From Ulva prolifera (lineage: Eukaryota > Chlorophyta > Ulvophyceae > Ulvales > Ulvaceae), in NCBI GenBank assembly GCA_023078555.1, contig CM041198.1, positions 5,770,924 through 5,834,923 on the forward strand: DNA of 64,000 bases, read 5' to 3'. The position numbers and the translations under genes are program-made. This document shows, one piece after another, positions 3,901-57,038 of this stretch. The stretch's first letter is position 1. Each line of letters starts with the position of its first letter. The notes under the pieces were generated by a model. That model was given only the letters and a program-made list of their open reading frames with translations. It did no database searches and was not told the origin of the DNA.

Positions 3901-5974
3901 TGGCGTAGCACTCGGCACCGTAGTCGCACTGGAGCGTGCCTTCTGATACCAGAACTGATGCAAAGCAGCCGGGGCCTTGACGCGCCGCCGCGCTGCAGGC
4001 TGGCGCTGCTGCCACCCCCAGAGAGCCTGGAGGGCGTGTGGGCGGCGGTCGCGGGGCTGCCGCGCCTGCGCCGCCTCGACCTCTCGCACTCCCACACCGT
4101 CGCGCCCTCCCACCTCGCGCTGCTCGCCGCCCTGCCCGCCCTCGAGGCCCTAGACCTCACCGGCGTGCACCTCCCGCTCTCTGCGCTCGCGCCCCTGGAG
4201 ACACTCACGGCCGTGACGCAGCTGCGCATCCCCAACGTCAAGGTGCGGCTTCGATGCGAACCCCATGCATGCGCCGTTCCTGCGGGTGGTATTCCTGCGT
4301 TCACAGGTGCAGCGCCTTGGGATGCGGGGGTGGCTTTGGACAGTCGAATGTCCATGTATGCGCCGAACCTGCATGCACTCATGCATTCACACGGGCAGGC
4401 GCTGGGTGTTGCTGTGATTGATTGCGGCCGCCATGTGTGGACGAAGATGAGTTTGATTACAAAAGAGTGAACGGGAGAAAACAAACACTGAAACCGAATC
4501 TCATCCGCATCAACACCAACAAGACAAGACAGGACGAAGATGAGTTCGATTGGCGGGGGTGCATGGCGGGGCAACGCAGCGGCCGTGTGCCGGTGAGTGG
4601 ACGTGGAGTGGTGCAGCACGCGATGTGGCGGGTGGATGCGGTGCAGGTCGTGAACGAGTCGTTCATGCCGTTGATCGGCGAGCGGCGCACGGTGCCGGCG
4701 CTGGCGGGCCTGCTCGACGCGATGCCGCAGCTCCGCCACCTCGACCTCTTCTGGCAGGGCGCCGGCGACAACCAAAGCATCATGAAGGACCCGAAGCACC
4801 TGCGCACCCTCGCCCGCGCCACGCACCTCCGGTGCGACCCCCTAGCCACCGCCCCCGTGCGCGCGCTCCCGTAGCGCGATCCACCGCAGCACAGCCCACT
4901 GCAGCACAGGCTGTAGATTCAAAAATACCCCAACACATGCCTCATCCCGCCGCGAACTGCCTGCGCGATCGTCAGCACTCAGTCACAGGATCCTGTGTAG
5001 AACTCCAGCACCGCAGTTCGCGCGTCGATGTGCCGCAGCCTGTCCGGCGCAGGCGGAGGGTAGCACATACAACCCCTCCCTACCCCCCCGAACACGCAAG
5101 GCAATGCTGTGCTTTGATTTACAGGCGGCTAGACATCGCGAAGATCGCGCAGGTTACGGACCGCTCCCTCATGCTGCTCGCGCCGCTGACCGCCGTCACC
5201 GCGCTCAAGCTCGGCTGCAACGCGTGGGACCTCTACCGCCTGACGGGCCGCGCGTTTGCGATGTTCCGGCGGTGGCACGCGCTGCGCGTGCTACACGTCG
5301 AGGCCTGCCGCAACCTCGACCGCTCCGCCCTCGCCGCCGTCGCCGCCTCCTGCCCCGCCCTCGAGTGCCTCCACCTCGACACCTCCTGCCGCGTCGACCC
5401 CGAAACCTTCAAGCTCGTCACCACGTGCGCCCACCCTTCCCGCCCCGCCCCGCCCGCACTGAAATTGATCATCTCGTTGGGTCAGACCGTGTCTGTGTGG
5501 GCTGTGGGGCGCAGGCCCGCACTGGAGCGCGTACGGTGATTCGGTGCACATGCATCTGTGGCTCTGTGGATGCGGCGGGATGCATGGCCGCCGTGTTTCG
5601 GCTTCACACTCGCCGCACTCGGGTTCAATGCTTTCTACGGTTTTGACAGCTCCCTATCCTCGACCTGCGCGCAACCGCCGTCTGCATCATGACCGCCATG
5701 GACCGTTCGCGTCCAGCTTCAGCGGCCGCTCCAGGGGTGCAGGCAAGCTGCACCAGGGTGGCATGCATGCAGGTTGCCGGCGCTGAGCGTGCTGGAGCTG
5801 GTGGAGCTCGTGCAGGTGCCCGACGCGGCGGTGCGCGACACCTGCGCGCAGCTGCCGCGGCTGCGGCCGGGCAGCGCGGACCACATCATCGCCCTGAAGC
5901 GGTGCGGTGGCGCGAACCTCGGCAAGTTCGGCGAGAAGCTCCCCGGCGGCTTCCTCGGCCGAGCGATGTCCTAG
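936..5974 (+). CDS. F-box / leucine-rich repeat protein (8 exons seen, 5' end open)
   Basis: Substrate-recruiting subunit of an SCF-type ubiquitin ligase by family; the substrate is unknown. Exons by splice signals and matching phase: 936-1277, 1381-2491, 2722-2873, 3143-3457, 3999-4242, 4647-4831, 5125-5424, 5773-5974. From codon 940 they sum to 949 codons with no stop. The F-box is at residues about 36-75 (DLPWHVLRVLMSH, then RLVCRSWHEAL). Residues about 110-530 are a low-complexity Ser/Pro/Ala/Gly linker. LRRs fill residues about 535-949 (LRRLDLSHSHTV, LEALDLTGVHL, LRHLDLFW, LRVLHVEACRNL, LECLHLDTSC, LSVLELVEL). The least certain junction is the donor at 3458, which lies in a 62-bp duplication. 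No in-frame ATG precedes the F-box, so a 5' exon is missing. Intron acceptors repeatedly read TGCATGCAG. Confidence 0.82.
3400..3523. repeat. 62-bp tandem duplication
   Basis: Two near-identical 62-bp units (3400-3461, 3462-3523) with a third partial start. They span the end of F-box exon 4, and each unit carries a candidate GT donor in CACGTGCG, so this exon end is ambiguous. Only the first donor (3458) keeps frame with the exon at 3999. Confidence 0.8.
3650..3722 (-). mobile_element. Decayed LINE-B 3'-end remnant in an intron
   Basis: Resembles the reverse complement of the LINE-B tail seen at 60144-60500: GAGAGGCCGG, then GGAAT, ATCCGCAAATCCACTCACGCA. It lies inside an F-box gene intron. 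No clear target duplication. Confidence 0.45.
4458..4531 (-). mobile_element. LINE-A 3'-end micro-insertion (74 bp)
   Basis: Reverse complement of the conserved LINE-A 3' tail (TACAAAAGAGTGAACGGGAG at its left end). It is flanked by a 19-bp target duplication: GGACGAAGATGAGTTTGAT at 4439-4457 and the same with one mismatch at 4532-4550. It sits in the F-box gene intron 4243-4646. Confidence 0.88.
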
Positions 5975-7388
5975 AGCCCACCGGTGACGGTGTTTGAGCG
6001 GAACTCGGTGGATGGACTGGTGACGGTGCGGGCCGTGGGTGGCTTGGCTGGCATGGTCGGCGGTCGGGGGCACGCTTGAGGTGAGATGAATTGTTCCGGC
6101 GAGATCCGGCGAGATCCGCCCGGGGCTGTGTGGCTGCCTGCGCGTGCATGCGCGCGTGCTGCAACGTAAAGCGCATGCAGGGTCATCACATGTGCTGCCT
6201 GCTTTTGGGGTTGTTGTCCTGGGGGGGCAGGGGGGTTCAGTCGGCGCAGGGGGCTGTATGGCGGACAAGGCAATCGGAGCTGTTGTATGCTCTGTGAGTC
6301 TGTGTCATGAGAACTTCAAGAGGAGTGATAGGGATGTATCGAGACAACGAGTGGACGTACGCGTTCGTGATTGTAATTGTGGGTGGCAGTACCGTGGCGC
6401 CGCTGAGGTGCTGCGTTTTCAAGGCACACTCATCATGGAGATCAAAGGTCAACCTGCGAATCCTACAGATCCAGTTGTGAGCCTCAAGGCTATGAACTGC
6501 TGATGGTGCAGCGTTGTAGCAGGAGGTCGGCGGCCGTTTCGAAAATGACGATTCGCGATGGCTTGCCGAAGCTGGGAAGTGGCTACAGCATTTGGCCTGC
6601 TGAGCCTACTGTCTTCATGGAACCCAGCTGCGATGTGCATGTGTAAGGGGCAGTCGCCATCAATCATGGTGGTTGTGAAGCCACAAGTGACATCCGGGCA
6701 CAAGAGTCCACACTCTGGTCCATTCATCATCAAAGCGCAAGGTTCGGGGTGCTGTCGGCGCAGAGCGTCAATGCAATCGTCCACCGCGTCTAGCCTTGAC
6801 GAAGCTTCCATGGCCGCAGACATGATCACATATACCGCTGTTGTAAGAGGTGGCTATCTGCAGCTGTCGTGGAACCAATACTGCCGGCATCTAATCATGG
6901 TGCGGTACGTGCCCATCGAGTTGCCAGACCCCCTCCCCGATCAAGACCTGAAGCAGCCCGATTTAGATGCATTTGTGACGCCGGTTGAGCAGGGGGACTG
7001 CCGATGCCCGAGTGGGCATGCACCGCTGATGCTGATCGCGTGTGGGAGCTGTAGATCGCCCACACCCCGCGGACACCCCGCTGGTATGCGTCTGGGAGGT
7101 GTGACAGCATACCTGAGTGGTTTCGCGTCGGCCGAGACCAAGGTGGACGGCATCCACTGTCGCACACGCCATGCATGACCAGTACCGAGACAGGTGCAGA
7201 CGCCGGTGTGATCGTGCCAGCTACACATTGTACACCGCTCATTCACGTCCACACGAGACTCAAGCCGGTAGTGAAGCGTAGACGATAGGACTGTGTGCGT
7301 GTGGAGACCATGTCAGGCCCTGCCACGTAGTGTGAAGCTTGAGCTCGCGCGCAATTGATCATTATAGTATCTCATCATTTTCAAACGA
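5975..7388. other. Intergenic region with one doubtful ORF
   Basis: No recognisable gene. A 126-codon minus-strand frame (6449-6829, starting MIMSAAMEASSRLDAVDDC) has protein-like composition near its start. It matches no family I know, and there is no splice or paralogue support. A plus-strand frame 6558-7178 overlaps it and is equally unsupported. Confidence 0.3.
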
Positions 7389-9099: not shown

Positions 9100-10317
9100 G
9101 AGGCCTAGGTGGAGCGCCACCAAGGCCACACGAACTGCGGCTGGAGCCACAGCGGCCGCATGCCATGCGTGGTGGAGTGCTGTTCTGCATTTTCGCCTTC
9201 GCGCAGAGTCGTGAGATGATCGGTGAGTGATGTGAGGAGTTGTGAGGGATGAGAGACGCAGTTGAGTGGCGTGGTAGAGAGGGCAATTCTGAGTTCCTAG
9301 CAGCATGCACAGACCCTTTTTGCTTGAAGCTGGTTGCTTCTGGGCGGAGGTGCAGGTTGCTGAGTGCGCTGCAACAGTGCGACGATGCGAGCAGATTTTG
9401 AGATGTTTCCTGACAGTGTTACAACAATGCAGCTGGACACACCTCAGCACAAAAAGTAGTTGTATACAACTGCGAGCAGGATTATGCAATTCTTGCTGCT
9501 GCAGCACTGAAGCGCCAGTTCCATGCCGATGTGGTGGAACACATTGGGAACACAACTTCTCAGTAAATGCCTTGGGAGGCAGCACAAAATAACACGGTTC
9601 GGTTTGTGTGTCGATGTGAGATCGCCGCAGCCTTGACTCAGAAACATGTGACCGATGGTCCACCATAAATTCATGAAGACGACAGCTTCAAAACAGCTGG
9701 TAGAAACAGTCTTGGAACGCATGCTTGTCACACATGCTGCACACTGTGGCAGTGCACAACCGCATCCTGTGCGAAGCTGCAGCCACACATACAATCAGCT
9801 GGTCTACCAGCCAGTGTCCACAGCACTGGCCCTACTGACAGCAGTCGGCATTCTCCACAGAACATGCACCACATCATTCGAGCACCTCTCCACACCACAA
9901 CAGAAGCATTACTGCCACGATAGGCAGGGCAGCAGGCGGCCAGGAACAAGGAGATTTGCATCAGGTCCCACCAAGCAGTCCACATTACCAACGCATGAGC
10001 TTCAGAGCAGCCCAAGCGACACCGCCACCATCAACACAGTACTGTCTAACTTCACCTTTGCTGCACAACGATGCGCGACACCGTATGCAGTACCAGGGCC
10101 TTCCGCATCAGTGGCTGGGGCCAGGCCCTCCTCCGCATTGCCCCGGAGGTAGACCCCTACACACACCCTCATCCTGCCGGCCAGCGCCCAACGGTATCGC
10201 CTGCTCCACCTCCCTCGCCGGCTGACTCCACGGCACGCTCATGCTCGCAGAGCATGCGCTTCCCCCGGAGACGCCGGAAGTCACGCGTGGCCGCGGGGTG
10301 GGGCTGTCCAGGGGTGG
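9100..10317. other. Intergenic region between convergent genes
   Basis: Lies between the 3' ends of the plus-strand DprA-like gene and the minus-strand ARMC8-like gene. Open frames here (for example 9655-10152) have no recognisable domain, and I see no repeat. Confidence 0.4.
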
Positions 10318-25589: not shown

Positions 25590-25702
25590 GATGTGAGCGA
25601 TTGTGGTGCGATTGTGTGTGTATGAATGTATTGCTGTTGATTTGGATGGGATTCGGTTCTGTTGTTTGTTTAGCAGATCTTCTTCCGTTCACTCTTTTGT
25701 AA
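25590..25702 (+). mobile_element. LINE-A 3'-end copy, diverged
   Basis: Short TG tract followed by GTTGATTTGGATGGGATTCG and the ending TTCACTCTTTTGTAA, the order of other LINE-A tails. It carries an 8-9 nt insertion relative to them. Target duplication not identified. Confidence 0.75.
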
Positions 25703-25941
25703 GACTGTACGTATACGCACGTGTACGTACATGCATATGTCACGCGTGCGGATCCTTCAGTTGGAAAATTCGTGCGTCTCGGAGTGGTTGCTTTGGGTTT
25801 GGTGCGTGCTGACTCAGGCGTGGGTGCGTGGTGCTGGGTTGCAGTAGGTGGACGCTCATCCCCTTCCGGCGGGTGACGGTGTGGCCCCATCCAGCGCTGG
25901 TGGGGTCGCCGCTTATCGAGAGATATGTATGTGTGGCTGTG

Positions 25942-25990
25942 TTACAAGGACAAAGGCAGCAAGGCGGGCAGCACCGCGAAAGAAGCAAAT
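25942..25990 (-). mobile_element. LINE-C tail micro-insertion (49 bp) with a 23-bp duplication
   Basis: TTACAAGGACAAAGGCAGCA at its left end is the reverse complement of the LINE-C tail. It is flanked by a perfect repeat of AGAGATATGTATGTGTGGCT plus GTG (25919-25941 and 25991-26013). Confidence 0.75.
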
Positions 25991-26236
25991 AGAGATATGT
26001 ATGTGTGGCTGTGTGGCCGCTCATCGATGTAGTGTGGCCGTGTGTATCTCCCGCGGCCGGCGCCGCGGCTGCCAGTACTACCACGTGGTCAACACGCGGC
26101 CCGAAAGTCGGGTGAAAATATGTACATTTTTGGGAAAATTTCGCGCAGTTTGCTGGGGTGGCGCGGGGGTACTCCAGTGGGCGACGAGCATTTGCAAACT
26201 CGCGGCGTCAGCCGCGTGCACGTGTTTGCGATCGAG

Positions 26237-28425: not shown

Positions 28426-28439
28426 ATAGCCAATGTATT

Positions 28440-28472
28440 TACAAAAGACTGAATGGAAAGAAAAAAATACGT
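28440..28472 (-). mobile_element. LINE-A tail micro-insertion (33 bp)
   Basis: TACAAAAGACTGAATGGAAA is a diverged reverse complement of the LINE-A tail. Flanked by a perfect 14-bp duplication ATAGCCAATGTATT (28426-28439, 28473-28486). Confidence 0.8.
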
Positions 28473-28705
28473 ATAGCCAATGTATTCTATTATCAGTTCG
28501 ATACGCTCTTTTACGTTTTCTTTTGGTGCGATACGTCGGCCCTTGTGTGCCGACGATTGCACGCGTGATGACGCCTGTTGCATTTTTTTGGTACCATGGC
28601 GTCGACGTCCTCTTTCGAAAAAAATGAATTCACGCCCATTGCGACGGGACCACATGTCTCTTTACACAAAATGTCTTGGACGCAGCGACTGCCTGCACGC
28701 CGCTG

Positions 28706-28732
28706 ATTGTCTTCTCCCGTTCACTCTTGTAA
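28706..28732 (+). mobile_element. LINE-A tail micro-insertion (27 bp)
   Basis: Contains CTTCTCCCGTTCACTCTTGT then AA, the LINE-A 3' end. Flanked by GCCTGCACGCCGCTG (28691-28705) and the same with one mismatch (28733-28747). Confidence 0.8.
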
Positions 28733-28823
28733 GCCTGCACGCCACTGGCTGGGCTTTTCCGGTGGACAGTCCAATGCAATCCGTCATGACAGCTTGAAGC
28801 CTACTCCATTGGCATGACCATAG

Positions 28824-29147: not shown

Positions 29148-32100
29148 TTATGCTGGTCTGTTGGTTAGTCCCATGTCCCGGATGTTCTCCCACAACTTAG
29201 CCATGGGCACTCCCTTGGTCATGCAGTCGGCCACCATATCATGAGTAGATATGTACTCTACTTGAAGCTCCCCACGTTCCACTCTGTCCTGAACAAATCG
29301 GTGGGCCACATCAATGTGCTTGGTGCGTTGATGCGCATGCGGGTGATGAATCAGCTTGAGAGCTCCCTGATTGTCACCAAACATCATCACTGGGTCAACG
29401 CGTCTTCTGAATTCTGCTTGAAGGTCGCGCAACCACAAAGCTTCCTTTGCTGCATGTGCCGCGGCTATGAATTCAGCCTCACACGTGGACTGTGCCACTG
29501 TGCTCTGCAATTTGGAGCTCCATGAAATAGCTCCCCCGGATCTAGTGAACACATATCCAGACGTGGACTTGCGTTTATCTAAATCCCCTGCATAGTCGGC
29601 ATCACAATATCCCTTGATGCTGTTAGGGCTGGACCTTTTAAACGATAGCCCCAGCTCCTTGGTACCTGCAAGGTACCTGAGAACCTGCTTGCCAGCTTCC
29701 ATGTGCTCCTGCGACGGATTTGACATGAAGCGTGCCAGCAAACCCACAGACTGCGCCAAGTCTGGCCTTGTGCAGTTTGCTAGATAGAGAAGACTTCCAA
29801 TCAAACTCTGATAATGCTTCAGATCTTTCTGATTGGCAGTTCCATCAAACTTCTGCAAACTGAGTTTGACATCCAATGGAGTTTTTCTACCCTTTGCCTG
29901 AGTCATCCCAAACTTGCTGAGTAAATCAGATGCATGCTGACTCTGACCTAGCCACAGCGTTCCGGCGGCTCTGTCTCGAATGATTTCCATTCCCAAGAAC
30001 AACTTTGCATCTCCTTTGTCAACGATTTCCAGCTGTTTCTTAAGAGACTCAATGATCCACTGAATTTTGTTTCTCTTCCCTGCAAGAATGAGGTCATCCA
30101 CGTACACGAGCACATACGTGGGTTCCCTATCGTCACCATCAGCTCTGAAAATGTACAGGCTCTCATCTGCGTGAGCCACTGTCATCCCCAGATTGAGCAG
30201 GCATCTCTTGAGGTGCATAAACCATGCACGCCCTGCTTGCTTTAGACCATTCATGGCCTTGTTAAGCTTCCAAACCTTTCCTTTGATTGGATAGTCTGGC
30301 GGAGGTTTGACATAGACAGTTTCTTCGAGGTCACTGTGCATGAACGCTGCTGTGACATCTAGCTGCACCAGATCCAAGTCATTCTGCACTACCTCTGACA
30401 TAAGCATCCTGGCCGTAGCATACTTGCTGACCGGTGCATAAACCTCAACGTAGTCAATGCCCTCCTTTTGCTCACATCCCATGGCCACGAATCGGGCTCT
30501 GAATCGCTCAATTCGGCCCAGTTCATCCTTTTTGAACTTAAACACATACTTTGTTGGAATTGCCTTGGTTCCCGGTGGCATATCGCTGCAGTCAATGACA
30601 TCATACATCCCGTTTTTGATCATGTCCTGATTTTCCTTTGCGATTGCCTCATACCATTGCTCCTTGTCCAGTCTGAACTTGATTTCATGGAATGTTCTGG
30701 GTTCCTCCTGCAAATCTGCATGATATGCCCTGTAATCTGCATATCTAGCTGGTGGCCCGGTGTTTCGCTTTGGCCTGCCAAATTGTGCTGGTGGCTCCCC
30801 AGCCTCTGGCTCATGTGCTATCTGATCCTGCATCACCTGCTCCCCAGGAGCATGATCGTCCAGTTCCTCTGGGTCCTGTAGATCTGATGCGACTGATGCA
30901 TCTTCCAATTCTGGCATGTCTGCATCAATCATTCCCTGTTCCTGTGCAGCTACCGGCAGGTCCTGTGCAGCTGCCACCTGACCATCGTTGTCATGTGCAT
31001 TCAGCTCAGCCTCATCTAGATGTTCATGCGGTTCATGCACTTCATCTGCATCATCTATTTGCTGTCCTGCAACTTCTGGCTCATGCATAGGCATTTCATC
31101 TTGTTGCTGTACGTCTTGTTGCTGAACACCTGCACCTTCCTGCTGCTGGATACCTGCGGCTGCAGGGTGGAAATCCTGCTGCTGCAACATTCTCCCCATG
31201 TTCGGCATCAATACGTTGTCACTGAAATCGATGCCTTCGTCTGTGCAAGACTTGTTCGTCATCCATGGCCCAGGCGCATTTTCGTCGAATCTGACGTGTC
31301 TAGATTCTGTCACTTTGAACCTGTCACCATCCGGAATCAGGATCCGGTACGCCTTGGATGACTGTGAGTAACCAATCATGGTACCCACCACTGATCGCTC
31401 ATCAAGCTTATTTCTCTTCTGTTCGGGTACTTGAACAAAAGCCTTGCACCCAAAAACTCTGAGTGCATCGCAGCTTGGTTTAATCCCCCAGAATAACTCA
31501 TATGGAGTCTTCTTTCTGCGTGTGGAGGCTGTCATGTTGTACAGCTTCACAGCCGTATTCAAAGCCTCCTCCCACATGCATGCTGGTGCATGTGATTCGA
31601 ACATCAAAGCCCGCAGTTTTTCCATAAGTGACCGATTTGATCTTTCAACTCTGCCATTCTGCTCTGGTGTGTAAACGCAGCTTTTCTGATGTTTGATGAA
31701 TTGCGAGTCCAAAAACTTTCGAACTCTGGCATTTATGAACTCAGACCCGTAGTCTGACCTCATGAACAACATCTGCTGCCTGGACAAATGTTGCAGCTGC
31801 CCCAGCGCGAACGTCAATCGCTCCGGTATGTCAGCTTTTGATTTGACACATACCACTGCTATCATGCGAGAGTAGTCATCGATCATGACCACAGCATATC
31901 TTGCACCTGACATACTCGGCAGTGGGAATGGACCCATGGTGTCCACGTGAACCAGTGTCATTGGCTTGTCAGCGATTGAGTCAGATTCATCGAAAGGCAA
32001 CTTGGCTTGATGCGCTTTCATGCAAGACTCACAGACATGGCTTGGTGCACCTAGCTTCTCTGGCATGCATTTCAAACAATCATGTTTGCACATGTGTTTG

Positions 32101-32261
32101 ATAACAGTGGGCGATGGATGCCCTAGTCGCTTGTGAAACAAGTCATATGAGACATGAAAAACTTCCAGCGGTTCCGCCCATGACACAGTCTTGGGCTTCT
32201 CATAACTCTGCTGAGTTACAGATGTCTCGACTGGCGTTTTGGTCAGTAGGAGTTTGCATTT
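29148..32261 (-). CDS. pol: copia pol: integrase, reverse transcriptase, RNase H (no protease)
   Basis: Open from upstream of 32186; the first residues overlap the gag end in another frame. Domains in order: GAG-pre-integrase zinc module (LFHKRLGHPS, then C-x2-C at CESCMKAH); integrase with the D-D-E triad (VDTMGPFP, RSDYGSEF, NGRVERSNR); reverse transcriptase (QLDVTAAFMHSDLEE, YVDDLI); RNase H (GYCDADYAGD, STCEAEF). The frame is intact to the stop at 29148. Normally 250 or more residues carrying the aspartic protease (DSGA motif) lie between the gag zinc knuckle and the pre-integrase module; here fewer than 50 remain. The element therefore could move only with protease supplied in trans. Confidence 0.95.
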   Translation of the reverse strand, partial: KCKLLLTKTPVETSVTQQSYEKPKTVSWAEPLEVFHVSYDLFHKRLGHPSPTVIKHMCKHDCLKCMPEKLGAPSHVCESCMKAHQAKLPFDESDSIADKPMTLVHVDTMGPFPLPSMSGARYAVVMIDDYSRMIAVVCVKSKADIPERLTFALGQLQHLSRQQMLFMRSDYGSEFINARVRKFLDSQFIKHQKSCVYTPEQNGRVERSNRSLMEKLRALMFESHAPACMWEEALNTAVKLYNMTASTRRKKTPYELFWGIKPSCDALRVFGCKAFVQVPEQKRNKLDERSVVGTMIGYSQSSKAYRILIPDGDRFKVTESRHVRFDENAPGPWMTNKSCTDEGIDFSDNVLMPNMGRMLQQQDFHPAAAGIQQQEGAGVQQQDVQQQDEMPMHEPEVAGQQIDDADEVHEPHEHLDEAELNAHDNDGQVAAAQDLPVAAQEQGMIDADMPELEDASVASDLQDPEELDDHAPGEQVMQDQIAHEPEAGEPPAQFGRPKRNTGPPARYADYRAYHADLQEEPRTFHEIKFRLDKEQWYEAIAKENQDMIKNGMYDVIDCSDMPPGTKAIPTKYVFKFKKDELGRIERFRARFVAMGCEQKEGIDYVEVYAPVSKYATARMLMSEVVQNDLDLVQLDVTAAFMHSDLEETVYVKPPPDYPIKGKVWKLNKAMNGLKQAGRAWFMHLKRCLLNLGMTVAHADESLYIFRADGDDREPTYVLVYVDDLILAGKRNKIQWIIESLKKQLEIVDKGDAKLFLGMEIIRDRAAGTLWLGQSQHASDLLSKFGMTQAKGRKTPLDVKLSLQKFDGTANQKDLKHYQSLIGSLLYLANCTRPDLAQSVGLLARFMSNPSQEHMEAGKQVLRYLAGTKELGLSFKRSSPNSIKGYCDADYAGDLDKRKSTSGYVFTRSGGAISWSSKLQSTVAQSTCEAEFIAAAHAAKEALWLRDLQAEFRRRVDPVMMFGDNQGALKLIHHPHAHQRTKHIDVAHRFVQDRVERGELQVEYISTHDMVADCMTKGVPMAKLWENIRDMGLTNRPA

Positions 32262-33012
32262 TCAAAGCTGGACAATCCGGTTTACGATGTCCTTTCTTTC
32301 CACAGTTGAAACATTTCCCTGTAAAACGCTTCGATTTTGGTGGATCCTCTGCTTTTGGCTTATGCGATCTCCTCGGTGGCGGGGCTTTGGCTTGTCTGGC
32401 ACCTGAATTCTGCACATGGAACGCTTGGAGCTCCGATTCCAATTGTTCCATCGAAGAGTCTGGCTGCTCCTCGAGCAGTCGATTGCAAAATTCATTTAGA
32501 GTCATGCTCTTGACGGTTTGAGACATGCATCTTTTGAAAATTGTATACTCCGGACCAAGCCCTCTCATGACCGCGTGAATGATTTCATCATCCGGGACAC
32601 GAATTCCACAGCCATCTAACATTCTGCATTGCAGAGTCTTGGCTCTGCTAGCGAACTCAAATGCTGTTTCTTTTTCTTCCCGCCGCAACGCGTGCAGCTC
32701 ATCCCTCATCCGATTCTTTGCACCGAGAGATTCAGTCGTGAATATGCTTTCCAGTGCTTCCCAAGCGTCCTTTGCTGAATTGGCACTGTCGATATGAATC
32801 CTCAGACCTGATGACGTGTTCATTCGTATCACTGCAAGGGCTTTTTGTGACATCTTAAGCTTCCCGGCAGCGTCGAGCGCCGCGTACTCTGCGTTCTGTT
32901 CCACAGCCGGCCAGAATCCACAGAGAATTAAAGCAGAATGAATGTCCCCTTTCCATCGGTGATAGTTTGTCATGGTCAATTGAGTGACTTTCATAAAGTC
33001 TGACATTCCCAT
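32200..33012 (-). CDS. gag: copia gag
   Basis: Capsid protein with UBN2/gag-type helices (NYHRWKGDIHSALIL, DAWEALESIF) and a C-terminal zinc knuckle CFNCGKKGHRKPDC. The ATG at 33012 starts MGMSDFMKVTQ; the frame is open upstream without an ATG. It stops at 32200 in a different frame from pol, just after the knuckle, so pol would need a frameshift or a separate start. Confidence 0.92.
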   Translation of the reverse strand: MGMSDFMKVTQLTMTNYHRWKGDIHSALILCGFWPAVEQNAEYAALDAAGKLKMSQKALAVIRMNTSSGLRIHIDSANSAKDAWEALESIFTTESLGAKNRMRDELHALRREEKETAFEFASRAKTLQCRMLDGCGIRVPDDEIIHAVMRGLGPEYTIFKRCMSQTVKSMTLNEFCNRLLEEQPDSSMEQLESELQAFHVQNSGARQAKAPPPRRSHKPKAEDPPKSKRFTGKCFNCGKKGHRKPDCPALKMQTPTDQNASRDICNSAEL

Positions 33013-33290
33013 CGTTGCGTCGATTTGACTTGTTGCGTCGATAGTCGAACCAAAAAAAACTTTGACCGACACACAACCTGCGTCACACTGCGTCAAACAG
33101 TATCTTATGCACTGCGCTCCCGCAGATTCAAATCTGTGCACAGCGGTGCTTCTCAGTCCTCAGCGACCAGTCGATGGCCGTTTGACCGAACCTGAAGCTC
33201 TACCTACCAGGCTTTCACCTACCGTAAGAAACCGGCATCACTATCGAGTCTCAAGACCTAGGAGCCTTTCTATAAACGGTACCGGCTAAG

Positions 33291-33597: not shown

Positions 33598-33668
33598 CAT
33601 AGCTGGACCGTTACTAGACTCATCTCGTGCTTCACCGTGGCGATCGAGCAGTGGTTCCGATAGGGCTT

Positions 33669-33706
33669 TACAAAAGAGCGAACGGGAGAAAATAAACACT
33701 GAAAGG
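33669..33706 (-). mobile_element. LINE-A tail remnant
   Basis: TTACAAAAGAGCGAACGGGA and then AAATAAACACTGAAA match the LINE-A tail reverse complement. Flanking duplication not found. A related GAGTGAACGGGAG occurs at 33763, between two AGGCCCCGAAC repeats. Confidence 0.6.
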
Positions 33707-34525
33707 GAAGTTGTTAGATAACACCGACTTGGCAGCTGCTACCAGGCCCCGAACCTGAATGAGTGAACGGGAGGCCCCGAACATTATATCTCTATATCTC
33801 GATCACATCTGTGTTATCCACGTATCGCCGACACGTGTGCGTGTTAATTTTTCTCCGCGCTTGGGCTCTGTATTATGGCTCTGGCTTCGGCGAGTCGTCC
33901 TGAGAAAGAAAGCACTTCTGCAAGCTGGAGCAGTGCTGCCCTCAGCGTCCGAATGATGGTATTTCACCCACTGTACCCATGATCACGCATGCGCTCGTAA
34001 GAGGCGATGCTGAACGTGCAAACCTTGGACGCATGACTTCAACCTCGGACCATCGACGCCGAGCTTGTGCACATCTTCCTTTGGTGATTGGGCACACATC
34101 TCACACCCGGCGCCCTCGACCGTCCAAGGCTGCCGTGTTCTTCGCCCTCCCTGTCGACTCGCACTTGAGCAAGCCCCACTCATCTAGCAGCGTCCCTGCG
34201 CGCGTGGCACGCGTTATGGCCCATGCATAGCTATATGAGTAACGTCTGTAGCCCGAGGCTGCCGGCCTATGCACTGGTGACAGGTCTGTTCATGTGTTCC
34301 ACAACACTAGCATGAGTTGGTTTGTTTACTAGCTTGGCCATATACTGGCCTGGCATGTTGTAAAGTTGGTACACAACACTGGGTAATCACAGCCCGCACT
34401 CGATAGATACTGACATACGGCTTTCCCTACCAGGGCTCAAACACAATGTGAAACACACACAACATCATGTGTATGTTTTTGCCTCTAATAAACCCAATGA
34501 AACTGGTGTGCAGGTTGAAGAGAGG
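33707..34525. other. Region upstream of Pro-rich gene 1
   Basis: From about 34277 it resembles 56797 onward in copy B (GGTGACAGGTCTGTTCATG, GCATGAGTTGGTTT). Immediately 5' of the ATG, ACTGGTGTGCAGGTT is conserved in both paralogues, either 5' UTR or an intron acceptor. The promoter probably lies here. Confidence 0.5.
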
Positions 34526-38382: not shown

Positions 38383-41300
38383 TCACACGAGGGTGTCCGT
38401 GTCGCGAAGTACAGACAGGATCTGCTCGCCACCGCCCCCGTGCTCGCCCAACACCTCGCGATACCGGCCCACCGCGCGGTCGAGCTGCGCGCTGTCCTTT
38501 GACTCGAAGCTGATCACGACCACAGGGCCGTGCTCCGGTGACGCGACGGGGTAGCTCCCCGCCGCGACGTCCGGGAACTCCCCGACGATCGCCTCAAACA
38601 CCGGCGCGATGCTCGCCTCATCCCCGGACTGCACCTTGATCAGCCTGCACACACCCACCTGTCAGCCCCTCTTTCGATGTACGTCTACAGGTGTACTTTC
38701 AAAGGACCGAGGCCGGGCGTGGTGCCGGTTCTCAGAATCCTTTCTCAAACCTGTTCACTCAATCATGGCACTAGGGTGGTCACGAGCTCGCACTACGGCT
38801 AGACCAGCATGTGTATGGATGCACTCATCAAGGACAGAGGAAGGGAATGATCGTAGGTACCACCGAAGGCGTATGTAGTTACAAAGGGCAGAGCCGGGTC
38901 ATGGAGCTGGTTCTCGGATTCGACTCAAGCCCGTGTACGTATGCATGTGTGTTTTCATGTACATGTATACATACACATCTAGGCGTACTCCGGCTTGTGT
39001 CTGTGAAGTACACTGCAGCCGCCCGTGGAGTGGCCGCCGACGAGCCTCTCGGACTGTCCTAGAGCTGGGACCGCCGCATCACCGCCGCTATAGCGCACAG
39101 CATGCAGCAACCAAGTAGGGCAGACGCCACGAGATACGTGCTGCGGTGCCACCTCGGTCGCGGTGCGTCCCCGCAATCCGCCCGGCCCCGCCACGGCTAT
39201 CTCCTGTTCTGTTGACCCCGGCAGCTCCTTCATGTGCACTACCCCCTCGTGGGCAGCAAAACGACTGCGCAGTCGCAATCCTGATCACATAGGACGCGAC
39301 CCTGCCGGACTGAGGTGTGGGTGCGGTTGTAGTGTGACCGTGTGTGTATGTGTTGCTGTTGATTCGGATGAGATTTGGTTTGGGTGTCTGTCTCCTCCCG
39401 TTCGCTTGTAAACTGCGCAGACGCACGACAGTGCAAAGCACAGCACGGCGTTACGTGATGGCACAGATACCGATCCTCACAAGCCCGTGCCGCAGAATCC
39501 CCCACATGGAAGCCTGGGGGGAGGGGGGGATGCGCACCTGTTGTGGTACTGGGCGGTGGTGGTCCCGCCGAGGCGCTGCAGCTGCGCACGGAGCGGCCCC
39601 CACTTTGCGCGCACGAGCTCCGGCACCCCCGGCAGCACAAACACGTTGCCGACCTGCAGCAGCGGGAAGGGGCTCTCCCGGCCGTCGGGCAGGGTGTGCG
39701 GCAGCAGCTCGGAGCAGCCCTCCGGCACGCGCGCCATCTTCAGGTGGCTCTCCGTGACCTGCACCCTCGCACTGTTGTTGGGTCTTCCGGCCCGACCACA
39801 TTGAACACTTCCGAACCTTCAGGTTTACAGTGCAGGCGGCAGCCCTGGACGCTTATTGCACAGCGGCCTCGCACCCCGCGGCGTGAATGTGTGCGCATGC
39901 GGCGCGAGCCCGACACGGCCAGGCGCGCAAGACGGAGTCACAGCTTGAGATGAATAACAGCATTGCCCGGTGTGTTTTCACGAAACGGTGCCCGCGGTCA
40001 TCTCGTGGTCCCCAAATTGCGGTGACAAGGCAGCTCCAGAGCTGCCGCATGTGTCTACCGGGGCGCATCCGGAAGGGGAGGGGTGTGATCTGTGTGTCAG
40101 GTGAACAGCAAGGCGGGCAGCCCCAGAACAGACCTCGGGGCTCAGGCCATTGCATGACAGAGCGCCGAATCAACTACTAGGCGCTGTAGAGGTGGGCCAC
40201 GCCGGTGGGGCGCGTACGGCATCGCCGAAGTAGCCACGCAGGGCAGCCTCGAAGGCCTGGTGCGTCGCGACGCGGGTGCCCGAGGCCGCCGCGACGGCCT
40301 CTATCGTGCAGTCGTCAACTGTCGGGCCGACGCCGCCGCACGTGATCACCGCGTCCGCGGCCTCCATCAGCTCCCCCAGCTCCCTGCACAGCATGCAGCA
40401 CTCTCGGCACAGCCAGCTCCACGGCCGTAACGCAGACGCGCACGCGCGGACTCTCTGAGCTGGACGCGCATCGTCATGTGCATGCATGTGTTCCATGCAA
40501 GGAGGATCCGGCGTGACAGTGCCGGGCATGCGGAGGGATGTCCGATCCATGGAAACCAACATGGCTGCATGGCGATGGGGGCTACTGGACGTACTCCCGT
40601 TGGACCGTATCCGCAACCCCGACCACCGCCGACATTAAGATCTGCGTCATCGCGTGGCGACTTGGACATCAACAGCAGATACGCGCACGGTCGTATTCAC
40701 AGGTACCGGCAGCCGCAGACACTTGCGCTCCACACAGCGTGGCACCCACTCACCAGCTCAAGTGCGGCCGGTGGCAGCAATAGCGTCACACTGCAGTGCA
40801 CCTCGCCGGGCCGGTGTGAGCTCTCTGTGCTCCTGACCTCAGAGGCAGCGACAGCCAGCCGTGGCCGACATTCACTTCCGGGCCAGGACGAGGGCTATGC
40901 CGACTGCAGTGCAGCCATTGCACATGTGCGATGACAAACCGGTGACTCGCACACCATCCCCACCAACACCTCAACACTACCGTCATACATTATTGCTATT
41001 ATTCCGCATGTGCGAGGCAGCTCTGGCGAGTGCATGCCCTCACCCATAACACACTCCCCCCAGCCGACATGCATCGTCATGTTTCAAGGTACATCTCAAC
41101 AGGGACCAGTTGCGTTGCGGCAAACTGCTATGCACCACGTCCGCCCTTGCCACCGCGCCCGGTAGCCCGCACAGCCGTCTCAGCACGAGGCTCCTCTGGC
41201 GAGTTCGCCAGCTGCCATCCTTCGATGGCTGCACCTCCTGAACAAACCGAACGAAGTATTGGCGCGCTGTTGACATCTGGAGCACACCGCGCGATCGCAT

Positions 41301-46824: not shown

Positions 46825-48622
46825 GTATGTAAGTGCAGGCAGCGGGTGAACGATCCGCGATATCGGGATAAGCAATGGCTCAGCGATGATCGCCGGTGGC
46901 CGCCCGCGTTGGTGAAGGCCCTGACAGCGTTCCTAGAGATCAAGACCATTGGATAATGGCTGGGCGGGCGTGCCTGGGCACAGCTTCACTTCCGGGGTGT
47001 CCGGACTGGGAGTGGGGGGCAAAGTTTGGAGATCCTTGATTATCTTCAAAGTCTGCTGCTGATCCAGCAGCCAGCGCCAACGGCAAGGAACCAAGCTTTG
47101 CGAATCTCTGCTGATATCTGTGAAGGCTACATGTGACGGAATCATGGTGCATAGAGTCGTTCAGTTGACAGCCGTCTGAGGCGCTGGCAATTTTACACAT
47201 ATTCTGTACCAATGTGTGGTGCTCATCAGCTTCCGCCAATCGTGTTTGCATAGATTGCGAGAATGCATCACGTGCTGCTAGAACTTGCTCACGTCAGACT
47301 ACACAAGATGCTGCTGGGACATGGCTGTTGGGGACGCCAGAACAGAATCTCGAGGTCTTGTACAACAGTCTGCATTCTTATGCGAGATGCCTGACTCCCG
47401 GCTTTGACAGTGCCCTTCGCCGCTAGCGGGCCTGAGTGGGTAATCCTCGTGGATCAAGATGTATCCCTGCCAAGCTATCCTGCCCCACAGTGACATGAGC
47501 ATGCAAGTCTACCATCTGATCAAACATTCAAGGGCACCCATGCCACAGTTTGCACACGGAGGCATCTCCTTCCGGCGCGCCGGAGACATCCTATGCAGTG
47601 CGTTTCAACATCCCCCATTCAGACATGGCCCACTAGAAGATCTAAAAATGCCATCCCTCGGACAGACATCGATTGTGCTGGGTGTTTGAGGCCCAACAAA
47701 CCTCCTGGATGACCACTCCCGTGCGCTGCTAGCAGTCACATCCGGCTGCTACAGCAGCGTACAGCACAAGTGCTGCTGCGCCGAGCGCCAACACTCGTGC
47801 CGTTGAGGCACGATTGCCGTTGAGGCGGGGGCGTGCCGTTGAGGCGGGGGCGGGAGCTGCCGCAGCCGTGATGCTCCACTGGCCGCCTGGATATCCGATC
47901 GGTGATCATGATCTTGCAGCGCCTCATATAATACACAAAACGAGTCCGCTGCGCAGAAGCGCTGTCAGGGGCAAGACGTCGTCACTGCTAGCCAAGGTAC
48001 AATCAGTGTCCAGCACAGCCGCCTCTCGCAGTGTTCGAGCTTCCATGGACTGGAATTCCAGTCGGTATTCACAGTCGGCATTCACACATGCCGATGCAGC
48101 AATCACACGTCGGATCGAAAGAACATCGACAGCGCGCAGCCTGCACATGTAGTCGCGGAGCTCCTAACATCAGGTCGTGCAACAGAGCTGCGTTACAGAG
48201 CCGCTAGGACGGTGCAGGTACAGCCAGTGCGACGCGCTCGCCGCCGCCTCTGGGCCAGCCCAACCTTCACGAAACGCGTGGGGAGCGTGAAAAGGCGTGG
48301 TCATAGGTGTGAAGCAACACGTGGGCAGGGACAGCGGGGGAACCAAACAGTGGAAGCGCGTGGTGCGCGTGGGATTCGGTGGCCAGGGGGGTGAAGCGAC
48401 ACGGCCTCCGGGGCTAGTGCTCTACAGTTGGGTCTTTTTTGGCGGGAAAACCGATGCCAACCCCTTATTTTGGTTGGGCTGCCTCCTCCAAGACGGTCAG
48501 TAGATGTCGGGGTTTCCCGCCAACGCTGTGGCAATCGGTCGGGGGTGTACAAGGTCGGACCGGGACGCCAGGATCTAAGCCCGGTGGGCAACAACACTAC
48601 AACCGAACGCACACCTGGAATG
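46825..48622 (-). other. Possible unknown gene, minus strand (uncertain)
   Basis: Two minus-strand frames have protein-like, helix-rich composition: 48148-47940 (RLRAVDVLSIRRVIAASACV and on) and about 47280-46990 (ARDAFSQSMQTRLAEADEHH then TLVQNMCKIASASD, SLHRYQQRFAKLGSLP). They could be exons of one gene, but I recognise no family and could not fix splice junctions. A 20-22 bp tandem (TGCCGTTGAGGC, three copies) lies at about 47800-47862. Otherwise nothing seen up to the LINE-A copy at 48623. Confidence 0.3.
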
Positions 48623-48772
48623 TTACAAAAGAGTGAACGGGAGAAAACAAACACCGAAACCGAATCTCATCCGCATCAACACCAACACACACTCACACAC
48701 ACACGAACGCAACAACCACACTCACACACACGAACGCACACCTCAGTCCGGCAGGATCGCGTCCTCCAGGCC
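48623..48772 (-). mobile_element. LINE-A 3'-end copy
   Basis: TTACAAAAGAGTGAACGGGA at the left, two short CA tracts, then CTCAGTCCGGCAGGATCGCG and CCTCCAGGCC: the full LINE-A 3' UTR in reverse. It lies at the left edge of duplication copy B. Confidence 0.85.
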
Positions 48773-49102
48773 AGAGCTCAGTTCGATCGACGTTCCACAG
48801 AGGCCACGCGCGCAGGCTGCTGTACACATGTGTACTTCTCCAACGCCGAGGTGCGTGACTCGCAGACAATTCGATGCAGGCTCGCATGCAGCGGCGCTGG
48901 TACCCGAGATCGACCTGGCCATATGGCTCACCTGATCTCGTCAACCCATGGACTGGAGAGGCTCCGCTGACTCAGCGGCGCTGAGCTGAGCTCAGCTGCT
49001 CTCAGTCTGTATGTCACTGGACCGGGCGCACGGACATCGTGTGAGCCGTCACATGGTGCTGCTTCCGTGCAAGGCAGCTGCGTACAAATTCGATTCCATT
49101 GT

Positions 49103-49215
49103 AAGGACGCCATCCAGCCAGACTGAGGTGGGAGTGAGGTTGCAGTGTTCGTTTGCTGTTGATTCGGATGAGATTCGGTTTCAGAGTTTGTTTTCTCCCG
49201 TTCACTCTTTTGTAA
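49103..49215 (+). mobile_element. LINE-A 3'-end copy without a TG tract
   Basis: AGGACGCCATCCAGCCAGAC, then directly GTTGATTCGGATGAGATTCG and the end CACTCTTTTGTAA. Target duplication unclear. Confidence 0.8.
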
Positions 49216-49797
49216 CACATGACGGGCATTCGTGTTGGTGGTGGACAGTGGTCACGGTACACAGGACCTTTTGGTGGATTTACGGGTCGTGCCAAAAAGC
49301 TCGGCCAATTCCGCTGCGGCCCCTCCCAAATCGATGCCCAGAAGTCAACCGCCGGAAATCTGTGAAGGTCTCATGGTGCACTGTGCATATACTGTTCAAT
49401 GTACCCGACCCGGATACGTATTTGCAGTATACATATGCATGTCCCAAGGAGGACGTGGTCTGCACCTGGACAATACGCGCGAACCTGAGGCTGACGCCGA
49501 CTTCGCGACATCTTACAGGTGTGCTTCGGGCCAGCGCCTTTGTTGAATAGCGTATAAGACCATTGTCTAAGTCGTGGCAGTAAAAGCATATATGTTGCAA
49601 CGGTGTTGCAAAATGGCCGACAGTGACTTGTCAACACATGCTGTGCGCAATTGATCGTAGATCGACGCCCAGATGGTCCGGATCCCTGGCTAAGGCCATT
49701 GAGCAAGAGACGTCATCGGTCGCTGCCCTTCCGTGAAGGTATATCAAACGGCAGAGCATCCAGTACAGAGCATACGATTTGGTGTATTTGCATTATG

Positions 49798-50138
49798 AAT
49801 CGTGTGGCTTCATGGGCAAGGCTGCCGTGAGGTTCGTCGGTCAGTTGGGGGATGTGGCCGCTGCCAGTGGGCGCATCTCCAAAGGCGCGTTTGTCCAGTG
49901 GGCGCTGCGGGTGTTGTCGGTGTCATTGCAGCGCGGCAATGCGATATGTATCGGAAGTCTGGGCTTGTCATCTCTCGGGAGCAAGGGTTGCGATATGATG
50001 CGGGCCTGGAGGACGCGATCCTGCCGGACTGAGTTGTGAGTGCGGTTGTAGTGTTCGTGTGTGTGTGAGTGTATGTTGCAGTTGATTCGGATGAGATTCG
50101 GTTTCAGTATTTGTTTTCTCCCGTTCACTCTTTTGTAA
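49798..50138 (+). mobile_element. LINE-A 5'-truncated copy with ORF2 C-terminus (341 bp)
   Basis: Flanked by a perfect 13-bp duplication TATTTGCATTATG (49785-49797, 50139-50151). It encodes the last about 80 residues of a LINE ORF2 (GKAAVRFVGQLGDVAAASG, then ALRVLSVSLQRGNA) ending at TGA 50037, similar to the LINE-B C-terminus at 60.5-60.7 kb. The 3' UTR has a short TG tract and the tail ending CTTTTGTAA. This copy links the dispersed tails to a LINE. Confidence 0.9.
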
Positions 50139-50283
50139 TATTTGCATTATGGCCCGCGCGGGGATGGTCTCCCCCGGGCTGGGTCTATCTGGACTGCAGT
50201 GCAGAGAGCGCACGAGGCACCACTTCCGTTTACTCTTTCCTAACGCATGGGGCACTGTGGTTTTCAAGTTGTTTGAGCGTTCG

Positions 50284-50361
50284 TGTGGCAATCCAGTGAT
50301 ATGGCCGCTATACCACTGGATCCTTGCACGTCGCGAGGATATATATCACTGGATTGCCACA
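50284..50361. mobile_element. 78-bp palindromic MITE
   Basis: Perfect 19-bp inverted ends TGTGGCAATCCAGTGATAT, flanked by a 5-bp duplication GTTCG (50279-50283, 50362-50366). The first about 37 bp match the 45-bp element at 62411-62455. Confidence 0.92.
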
Positions 50362-50449
50362 GTTCGTCACCTCGGTGGTCCCAACACAGCAGAGGTGTAA
50401 AGCATTTTCAACTGAATAATCCGAGTCACGTCGCATGGTAGTCGGTGGC

Positions 50450-53400: not shown

Positions 53401-54381
53401 CGTAGCGTCCTTTACGAAGGGTGTCTGCACAAGTTGTGACATCAACGTGTGAGGCTCTGCAGAAGGTAGTCCGGCTTCGGTTGCAAGCCGTTGCAGGTTG
53501 CCTGCACATGCGGAATCTTTCCAGTCCCATACATCAGACAGCTTAACCACACCATGTGATGTAGATCGCACTCTGCAGTATCAAAGGATTTGGTACTCCA
53601 TCTGTGATTCTGGCAGCACAGAATGCTCTTGTTGCATCGCTGACCTTCAAAGGCTGGTGTGCACAGCCCTTTTCATTTGGATCACTACTGTGCTTCCCAT
53701 GATTATGCAAGACGATATACAGATCATTGGGATGATTGCGAAACACCCGACAGTGCATGCTGTACCGGCAAGCACAACATGTGGCACCAGTGCCCCTAGC
53801 ATCTTTCCCTACTCGAGTAGGACATTTTTTGCCAGATGCCTGGCCTGAGTTCGTAGCCAGTTTGGCAGCGTTTGCGCCAACCAGCCCCGCACTCTGCTTC
53901 AGTTTAGCTGATTTTTTCCCAGCACCCGAGAAATTGCAATTGAACATTTGATTCAATGTAATTTTTTTACTGGCCTGATCCTTCTCCTTATATAGCTTGC
54001 AACCTCCCCGTTTTTCCTCAGAGAGAACAAAATTCGCAGCCGTGTTGTTGACATCGTCACAGCGAAGACAAGCAGCGACGGCACCCCTGCGCGAATCCAG
54101 GGTCCAAACTATTTGATCATAAGTTGCGGACTCATAAGGCTGAGGTTCGAGGCGCAAATCGCGTACATCCCACGAGATGGACAGGTCCGGCAGTACATTC
54201 GAATTTGGAAGCGCCATGGCATCTAAACGCATCTCGACTGAACGCAATGCCAACTGATTTGAAAAATGATGGATTTAGTGTGTTTCTGTGGTGGCCCTGA
54301 TGCTTTCGCTTTGAGTTTTGTTGAGACTGCAAGCTAGCGAGGGTGGCGTGGTGTACAACCGTCGGGGAAAATAACATGGGG
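50450..54381 (-). mobile_element. Mutator-like element (MULE), 3.93 kb
   Basis: Terminal inverted repeats of about 115 bp (50450-50565 and 54265-54381, about 95% identical) start CCCCCGTGTTATTTTCCCCG. Perfect 9-bp target duplication GTCGGTGGC (50441-50449, 54382-54390), as expected for MULEs. It contains an intron-bearing transposase. Copy A at 28260-28380 has the unbroken site. Confidence 0.93.
50949..54253 (-). CDS. MULE transposase with SWIM zinc finger (about 5 exons)
   Basis: Exon regions (transcript order, approximate): 54253-53560, 53560-53300, 53240-52630, 52610-52200, 52200-50949. The N-terminal part ends in a Cys/His region (CCACRYSMHCRVF, LYIVLHNHGKH) like FAR1/MULE DNA-binding modules. 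The central MULE domain has VLVMDTTFGTNRYGFSLLVM (first Asp), ASILTDDSAANQKAA (second Asp), CLYHVRAAL, and a later Glu in TTGVCEGFNSSAK. A SWIM finger follows (CCSCDAGRQQLFCVHH). The C-terminus is about 300 residues without a known domain. No frame-breaking stop was seen inside the conserved blocks. Exact splice sites were not all fixed. It starts just inside the right terminal repeat. Confidence 0.85.
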
Positions 54382-54584
54382 GTCGGTGGCTGCTTGCAAG
54401 CTACGGTGCACCGAGCAGTGCATCTGCCGATGCAGAACGCTTGACGCACATGCTTTGCGAGGCCGAACCGGCTAGGCTGAATTGCGGCTGCACGCGTTCC
54501 AACGCATGCGAAGTTCGGAAACCGCGGACGCACGAACCCAACGCGTTGCAACGTCGCGACGGACCGTGTACCTGCTCACCCGAG

Positions 54585-56504
<1,920 letters not shown>

Positions 56505-56693
56505 TACCTGCTCACCCGAGCTTATGCACCTGCTTTTATGATCGCACATGCACATAGCTCGCACCTGCTGCTGTCGACCGTTCGAGACTGCCGCTGTCTT
56601 TTCACGCCCACTCGCGACCTGTGGTTGCGCAAAACCATCATGTCTGACCGTGTTCCCTCGCGCGCTGCATGCATAATGCACATGAAAAAACTG

Positions 56694-56752
56694 TTGATGC
56701 GGATGAGATTCGGTTTCTGTGTTTGTTTTCTCCCGTTTACTCTTTTGTGAAT
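56694..56752 (+). mobile_element. LINE-A tail micro-insertion (59 bp)
   Basis: TTGATGCGGATGAGATTCGG to CTTTTGTGAAT, flanked by a perfect 14-bp duplication ACATGAAAAAACTG (56680-56693, 56753-56766). Confidence 0.92.
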
Positions 56753-57038
56753 ACATGAAAAAACTGGTATAGCTTGTGGCCGTCCTTCAATTGTTGGTGA
56801 CATGTCTGTTCATGCGCAGGACATAGTTCCAACAGCATGAGTTGGTTTGGTGAGTAGCTAGGCCATGCAATACTATTAGTAGCCTGATGTAGTACTAGTA
56901 TCCTAATGTTTTGTTATTGAGTAGTACAAAAATCGCCCACACCACTCGTTTCCATGATATGTTTAGCCTTGGCAAAGACATCTTTATGCATACGTTCCTG
57001 CCTCTGGTACAACCAATGCAACTGGTGTGCAGGTTACG

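What the first reader, a model, noticed from the sequence alone, without database searches (positions are those of the whole stretch)
4439..56766. LINE-A: dispersed 27-74 bp 3'-end insertions with full-size target duplications
At 4458-4531, 28440-28472, 28706-28732 and 56694-56752 an insertion made almost only of the last 27-74 bp of a LINE 3' UTR is flanked by duplications of 19, 14, 15 and 14 bp. Longer copies (39278-39411, 49798-50138, 54585-56504) share the same 3' end and also have 13-16 bp duplications. Extreme 5' truncation of every copy in one 64-kb window suggests very low processivity, or a mechanism (or host defence) that stops reverse transcription almost at once. Such tiny insertions would be missed by repeat finders and seed short dispersed motifs across the genome.
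Basis: seen in the sequence. Interest (0 to 1): 0.82.

Follow-up and report, generated by a model that had tools for sequence, protein, structure and literature searches.

The report
LINE that mostly inserts tiny stubs
A jumping element in this genome usually copies only its last few dozen bases into a new site, yet many of these stubs carry a normal duplication of about 13 bases, which suggests that the copying step can fail early without stopping the rest of the insertion.

Summary
In detail: the seven named insertions and their duplications are in the window. The source element lies elsewhere in the same 88.9-Mb genome: about 3.85 kb, one 1,199-codon frame with a reverse transcriptase, R2-like by sequence. 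No endonuclease was found by Pfam; the C-terminus is RLE-like by motif only. The last 21 bp occur exactly 869 times (reversed control 0) and 2,155 times with up to 3 mismatches (control 0). Counts fall to 474, 74 and 34 at 138, 1,000 and 3,787 bp from the 3' end (controls 4, 2, 7). Inserts down to 22 bp carry duplications. Of 116 independent tails 55 have one; its length does not depend on insert length. A constant stopping rate is rejected: stopping is about 37-72 times likelier per base near the 3' end than beyond 1 kb. 5' junctions show excess microhomology. Tails cluster, and some were hit again. A second family also makes stubs. 5' truncation of LINEs is known; this extreme early-stop form looks like a new variant. 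RT failure, host end-joining and short RNA templates cannot be separated here.

The parts
4439..4549 (-). LINE-A 3'-end insert 4457-4531 (75 bp) between 18-bp duplications (1 mismatch)
25592..25702 (+). older LINE-A 3'-end copy (73% identity over 115 columns), no duplication found
28426..28486 (-). 33-bp LINE-A insert 28440-28472 between 14-bp duplications (exact)
28691..28747 (+). 27-bp LINE-A insert 28706-28732 between 15-bp duplications (1 mismatch)
33668..33704 (-). 37-bp LINE-A 3'-end match, no duplication found
39264..39425 (+). 134-bp LINE-A insert 39278-39411 with an altered tail, 14-bp duplications (1 mismatch)
48604..48743 (-).
49104..49215 (+). LINE-A 3' end (79% identity), no duplication found
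49785..50151 (+). 341-bp LINE-A insert 49798-50138, 99.7% identical to the 3.8-kb copy, 13-bp duplications (exact); youngest subfamily
54569..56520 (+). LINE-A insert 54585-56504 between 16-bp duplications; holds a (GT)n array of about 1.8 kb
56680..56766 (+). 59-bp LINE-A insert 56694-56752 between 14-bp duplications (exact)
25919..26014 (-). 48-bp insert of the second family (LINE-B) at 25943-25990 between 24-bp duplications (exact)
   Evidence: a shorter duplication for the same insert
60389..62061 (-). LINE-B copy: RT/C-terminal reading frame (27-36% identity to LINE-A) with its tail, and beside it a 26-bp tail stub next to copies of AGCC(T)GTATGTATGTAG

Best explanation
LINE-A is a non-LTR retrotransposon of about 3.85 kb with one long frame: an R2-like reverse transcriptase and a C-terminal CxC-DHAMxC plus RLE-like region. 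It most likely inserts by target-primed reverse transcription from an RNA that ends ...CTCTTTTGTAA, often followed by TA-rich bases, without poly(A). Shown here: the 3' end is fixed, the 5' end is free, a 9-30 bp duplication (median 13) flanks about half of the tails tested, and its length is the same for short and long inserts. 5' junctions have excess microhomology or a few extra bases. Inferred: the nick, priming and second-strand cleavage are set by the protein on the target and do not wait for a long cDNA. Most cDNAs are abandoned within about the first 100 nt, before copying has become processive, and the short end is annealed and sealed into the break. The few that pass about 1 kb often reach the 5' end. 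The cause of the early stop (RT leaving the initiation state, host end-joining proteins taking the cDNA end, or short templates) is not resolved; a second related family that also makes stubs favours a shared or host cause.
For: Two source copies with an open 1,199-codon frame on C2 and C5, 99.7% identical over 3,827 bp with different flanks; one has a 13-bp duplication TATTGTGCTGCCC, read by eye; none was found for the other. RVT_1 E 7.5e-11. Of six PDB matches to the RT half, three are named R2 and two 'reverse transcriptase-like protein' (R2 of Bombyx, recalled), best E 3.7e-4 over about 250 residues; the sixth is unrelated. Counts with up to 3 mismatches 2155/474/74/34 at -21/-138/-1000/-3787, controls 0/4/2/7; exact counts 869/590/276/114/33/22, controls 0. 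Hazard per nt 0.0105, 0.0095, 0.0047, 0.0018, 0.00015 across the exact steps. Youngest subfamily: 27 tagged copies, 22 independent by my count after merging duplicated loci; 8 of 22 at or under 59 bp, 2 near full-length. Duplications: 55 of 116 independent tails, length independent of insert length (Spearman -0.14, P 0.30; median 13 for 26 inserts up to 60 bp and for 29 longer ones). Microhomology mean 1.73 nt in the 37 junctions without extra bases against 0.74 expected from both sides by chance, simulated maximum 1.49; 18 of 55 have 1-13 extra bases. LINE-B-like tails: 8 of 35 with duplication, control 0 of 105, inserts 23-340 bp.
Against: 61 of 116 independent tails show no called duplication. 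In the unbiased sample of 20 exact tails on C1, 9 were called (L060 also by eye), 6 run beyond the fetched stretch, and L053, L054, L057 and L067 are unclear. Upstream words undercount older subfamilies, so the genome-wide decline is partly age; the youngest-subfamily set is small (21 lengths in the fit) but has the same shape. Mismatch counts may be incomplete: four exact places listed are missing from the list. The RLE is by motif alone: phmmer of the C-terminus gave only unrelated hits and the profile none (made from a partly mistyped alignment). The RNA fold of the last 156 nt is not special (z 0.77), so no structure explains a stop. The abortive step is inferred from genome structure only.
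Confidence: 0.7

Rival explanations
1. Host end-joining cuts copying short: Ku-type proteins take the cDNA end during RT pauses and join it to the upstream target by microhomology.
For: Passages of PMC2666801: zebrafish ZfL2-2 inserts in chicken cells are longer without Ku70 or Artemis, and full-length ones came only from NHEJ-deficient cells. PMC4245944 passages: an annealing pathway with microhomology or extra bases mostly gives truncated inserts. Our junctions have both. A second family makes stubs too.
Against: No host gene was tested. A host race at a constant rate would give a constant hazard, but the hazard falls strongly with length; it would have to act mainly on newly primed complexes.
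Confidence: 0.35
2. Short templates: RT copies 3' fragments of degraded or cleaved LINE RNA in full, so the stubs are complete copies of short RNAs.
For: Extra bases at 18 of 55 5' junctions would fit addition at a template end. A hazard that falls with length would fit a pool of RNA fragments.
Against: The called insert lengths up to 199 bp spread from 22 bp upward without a pile-up that I could see (by eye), so no single defined small RNA or SINE.
Confidence: 0.25
3. Constant low processivity of the RT.
For: Most copies are short.
Against: Rejected in the youngest subfamily: difference 19.7 log units, largest of 5,000 simulations 6.0. 22 exact 5'-end words against 33 at -1000.
Confidence: 0.03
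4. Shrinkage or selection after insertion: long copies were deleted or removed by selection.
For: Long insertions are likelier to be harmful (general knowledge). The genome-wide counts mix ages.
Against: The called stubs have duplications next to the tail and next to the 5' end, which internal deletions would not give. Copies that share the young tag with near-identical full-length copies show the same spread.
Confidence: 0.1
5. Tandem duplication or gene conversion produced the look.
For: A few loci are duplicated copies of one another (L022/L023, L051/L055, L074/L080/L081, L075/L076/L079).
Against: Duplications differ at each independent locus: 0 of 243 swapped flanks matched, 0 of 105 for LINE-B, 2 of 310.
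Confidence: 0.02

Closest known systems
Zepp LINE of Chlorella/Coccomyxa (passages of PMC8226300, PMC3446292)
   Same: frequent 5' truncation, insertion into existing copies, arrays made mostly of 3' ends
   Different: Zepp is placed with L1 elements and, in Coccomyxa, forms one cluster per chromosome. LINE-A is R2-like by sequence, shows no poly(A), and is dispersed with only local clusters.
Ylli LINE of Yarrowia (passages of PMC5014426)
   Same: 17 full-length copies, 7 sequences over 1 kb, 104 fragments of 30 bp to 1 kb: a similar length spread
   Different: Ylli has an apurinic-type endonuclease and poly(A) tracts, and that paper says target duplications have not been identified. LINE-A has many more stubs, about half of the tails tested with duplications.
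Zebrafish ZfL2 elements in cultured cells (passages of PMC2666801, PMC4245944)
   Same: truncation linked to microhomology or extra bases at the 5' junction; few full-length inserts (6% for ZfL2-1)
   Different: 5-bp duplications for ZfL2-1; L2-type elements; inserts made in cell culture, not a genome census
R2 and other RLE-type LINEs (PDB 8gh6, 8ibw, 9nl3, 9dou, 9nl2; Utopia paper PMC4640811 passages)
   Same: single protein, RT in the middle, C-terminal zinc-finger-like and RLE-like region
   Different: no fixed target site here (only an AC preference, 16 of 55); regular duplications of about 13 bp

Membership tests
non-LTR retrotransposon (LINE) | reverse transcriptase reading frame in the long copies | tested here: met
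   RVT_1 E 7.5e-11 in the 1,199-codon frame of L031
non-LTR retrotransposon (LINE) | fixed 3' end, variable 5' truncation, target duplications | tested here: met
   55 of 116 independent tails with duplication; fall of counts with distance
RLE-type LINE (CRE/R2/R4/NeSL/HERO clades) | RT closest to this group | tested here: inconclusive
   five of six PDB matches at E up to 1 are R2-type (two of them by recalled identity), none is named L1; weak E-values, and no tree with clade references was built
RLE-type LINE (CRE/R2/R4/NeSL/HERO clades) | C-terminal zinc finger and restriction-like endonuclease | tested here: inconclusive
   CxC...DHAMxC seen in A and B by eye; GD-x(12-13)-DVxV ... AE ... 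KR conserved in three elements; its reading as RLE is recalled; no Pfam or PDB match; structure prediction not available
RLE-type LINE (CRE/R2/R4/NeSL/HERO clades) | specific target site (usual in most of these clades, not in HERO) | tested here: not met
   dispersed sites; AC at the duplication start in 16 of 55, background 5.9%
L1/Zepp-type LINE | N-terminal AP-type endonuclease | tested here: not met
   only RVT_1 found by Pfam at E up to 0.1 in the one full frame scanned
L1/Zepp-type LINE | poly(A) tail (recalled for this group) | tested here: not met
   called copies end TTTTGTAA then the duplication or a few other bases
SINE | defined 5' end | tested here: not met
   insert lengths spread widely from 22 bp upward; no Rfam match at gathering score in the window
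SINE | own internal promoter | not tested
   no promoter search was made

The most novel reading that the evidence does not exclude
Target-primed reverse transcription here has two regimes, like abortive and productive transcription: a frequent abortive phase that still completes nicking, second-strand cleavage and sealing, and a rare processive phase. The tail itself may be a good target (its opposite strand begins TTACAAAA and holds the preferred AC), so that each stub makes a new landing site and breeds more stubs: three tail-to-tail pairs (L008, L012, L077) among 22 young copies, L069 inserted inside an inverted tail, and 13 neighbour pairs within 500 bp among 100 listed tails where 0.4 (uniform) or 1.3 (50-kb jitter, maximum 5) are expected.
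Probability: 0.35. Interest if true: 0.72.

Novelty: new variant of a known kind. Interest (0 to 1): 0.55.

Why it matters
It offers a genome-scale record of when LINE copying fails, with some 2,000 tails. It indicates that duplication length and sealing do not depend on cDNA length, which would separate target cleavage from cDNA synthesis. It also points to a hidden load of 20-60 bp insertions that repeat finders may discard, and that can bring a TGTAA motif, (GT)n seeds and new target sites into a genome.

Tried and rejected
A stable RNA structure in the 3' UTR as the stop signal: not supported (z 0.77). De novo search for even shorter stubs ending TTTTGTAA, CTTGTAA or TGTAA: gave known copies, LINE-B-like copies and one 7-bp case (L019), but no clear class under 20 bp. 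Other five-letter words also gave hits (2 to 61, against 48 for TGTAA, of which 12 lie in the tandem array L050); I did not look at where theirs lie, so the bare counts there are not evidence. A self-tail target among the deduplicated sites: 6 of 55 by a loose match, which I judge not clearly above chance, so that idea rests on neighbour clustering and on single nested cases. My first microhomology control (0.39) counted one side only and was too low; the report uses 0.74. In some searches the sample locus L069 was read at a neighbouring tail; one search repeats the 20 at the intended tails (9 called instead of 8). Rfam: 0 matches at gathering score. Solved-structure searches for the C-terminus: nothing related. 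Papers: 9 searches were accepted; six papers were opened in passages only. None of the listings I saw names a LINE with such a census of stubs; this is not proof that none is in print.
Full report
Observation. The window belongs to an 88.9-Mb genome in 44 contigs (contig C3); its GC is 57%. One more with an exact 13-bp duplication lies at 48617-48730. By a fuzzy tail search, 11 tails with up to 4 errors lie in the window against 4 in sixteen evenly spaced 10-kb samples; reversed controls gave none.

The source element. Following four long copies upstream gave two of about 3.83 kb (L031, L033), 99.7% identical over 3,827 bp with different flanks, each with an open frame of 1,199 codons; the two proteins differ at 4 positions. 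L031 has a 13-bp duplication by eye; none was found for L033. Pfam finds RVT_1 at residues 483-683 (E 7.5e-11) and nothing else at E up to 0.1. In PDB the RT half has six matches at E up to 1: three named R2, two named 'reverse transcriptase-like protein' (R2 of Bombyx, recalled), one unrelated; best E 3.7e-4. The C-terminus has CxC...DHAMxC and a GD-x(12-13)-DVxV ... AE ... KR pattern shared with the second window family and with L041. I read this as an RLE from memory of such proteins; it is not proven.

Genome-wide profile. Exact 21-base words were counted at growing distance from the 3' end: 869, 590 at -58 (two degenerate letters), 276 at -138, 114 at -327, 33 at -1000, 22 at -3787; the reversed controls were all 0. 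With up to 3 mismatches: 2155, 474, 74, 34, with controls 0, 4, 2, 7. Four exact places listed are absent from the list, so the tolerant counts may be low. The risk of stopping per base falls from about 0.010 to 0.00015 in the exact set and from 0.013 to 0.00035 in the tolerant set. Upstream words are lost faster in old copies, so this alone is not enough.

Age control. A one-letter tag in the tail (AGTATTTG) marks the subfamily of the two full-length copies. The 33-base word occurs 27 times. Eleven were not yet held and were fetched. After merging duplicated loci, 22 are independent by my count. Lengths: about 30-59 bp in eight, 86-166 bp in six, one (L013) undefined because its GT tract is expanded, then 341, 719, 1005, 1164, 1259 and two of about 3.8 kb. 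One of the eight short ones (L071) has no called duplication and is measured by alignment. The fit used 21 of 22, leaving out L013. A constant rate is rejected against a rate falling as 1/length (difference 19.7; largest of 5,000 simulations 6.0). Copies under 33 bp cannot carry the full tag, so stubs are undercounted.

Unbiased sample. Every fifth of the first 100 listed exact tails on C1 was fetched (20 copies). Fourteen of 20 end within 115 bp; six run on, two of these being duplicates of each other. Nine of 20 have a called duplication; L060 has one by eye. One is a 22-bp insert between 14-bp duplications (L058).

Duplications and junctions. Of 116 independent tails, 55 have a duplication scoring 6 or more, 9-30 bp, median 13. 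It is 13 for the 26 inserts of 60 bp or less and 13 for the 29 longer ones. Sites start with AC in 16 of 55 (background 5.9%, P 7e-8). Between tail and duplication there are often a few bases: none in 12 of 55, then C, T, TA and others. At the 5' side, 37 of 55 have no extra base and share on average 1.73 nt; chance from both sides gives 0.74 and at most 1.49 in 10,000 simulated sets, with a match probability of 0.27 assumed. Eighteen have 1-13 extra bases.

Clusters. Of 100 listed exact tails on C1, 13 neighbour pairs lie within 500 bp against 0.4 (uniform, maximum 3) or 1.3 (jitter of 50 kb, maximum 5): eight in the same direction, three tail-to-tail, two tail-out. Three young copies abut an inverted tail within 3 bp (L008, L012, L077). 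In L012 and L077 the duplication itself contains the older tail's end, and in L069 the duplication lies within an inverted tail, so these went into existing tails; no duplication passed the threshold for L008.

Second family. LINE-B-like tails (...CTTGCTGCCTTTGTCCTTGTAA and variants) show 8 of 35 with duplications (0 of 105 control), inserts 23 to 340 bp, four of the eight at 86 bp or less; five of eight duplications start with CACA. LINE-B protein remains are in the window at 60589-62025, 27-36% identical to LINE-A.

Reading. The simplest account is target-primed reverse transcription in which most cDNAs are given up in the first hundred bases while cleavage and sealing go on as usual. Work in chicken and human cells links truncation to annealing-type junctions and to Ku70/Artemis (passages of PMC4245944 and PMC2666801). 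Zepp and Ylli show the nearest natural cases (passages). What appears new is the size of the effect, its shape, and the constancy of the duplication down to 22 bp. The cause is open. After checking, confidence in the best explanation was lowered from 0.72 to 0.70 for the possible undercount and the misread sample locus.

Noticed in passing
window 54630-56440: A (GT)n array of about 1.8 kb sits inside one LINE-A insertion; long GT tracts also precede the tail in L013 and L014, so stubs may seed long microsatellites.
   Followed up: partly
window 60389-60485: A 26-bp LINE-B stub lies beside the tail of a longer LINE-B copy, both next to copies of nearly the same 16-17 bp sequence: perhaps two insertions at one target.
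   Followed up: partly
window 33744-33782: A 17-bp spacer between exact 11-bp repeats has a 13-base match to the tail (counting shared bases) but ends in another sequence: a possible insert under 20 bp.
   Followed up: no
LINE-B-like copies in L013, L014, L016, L032 and the window: Five of eight LINE-B duplications start with CACA, which suggests a target preference of its own.
   Followed up: no
window 29148-33141, minus strand: Copia-type element in two reading frames (gag; integrase and RVT_2).
   Followed up: no
L050 (G000:C4:10500001-10510000): Tandem array of a unit of about 167 bp, possibly a satellite.
   Followed up: no
G000:C2:10966201, 10989875, 11014001, 11039469: Four LINE-A tails about 24-25 kb apart in the same orientation: probably a large tandem duplication.
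   Followed up: no
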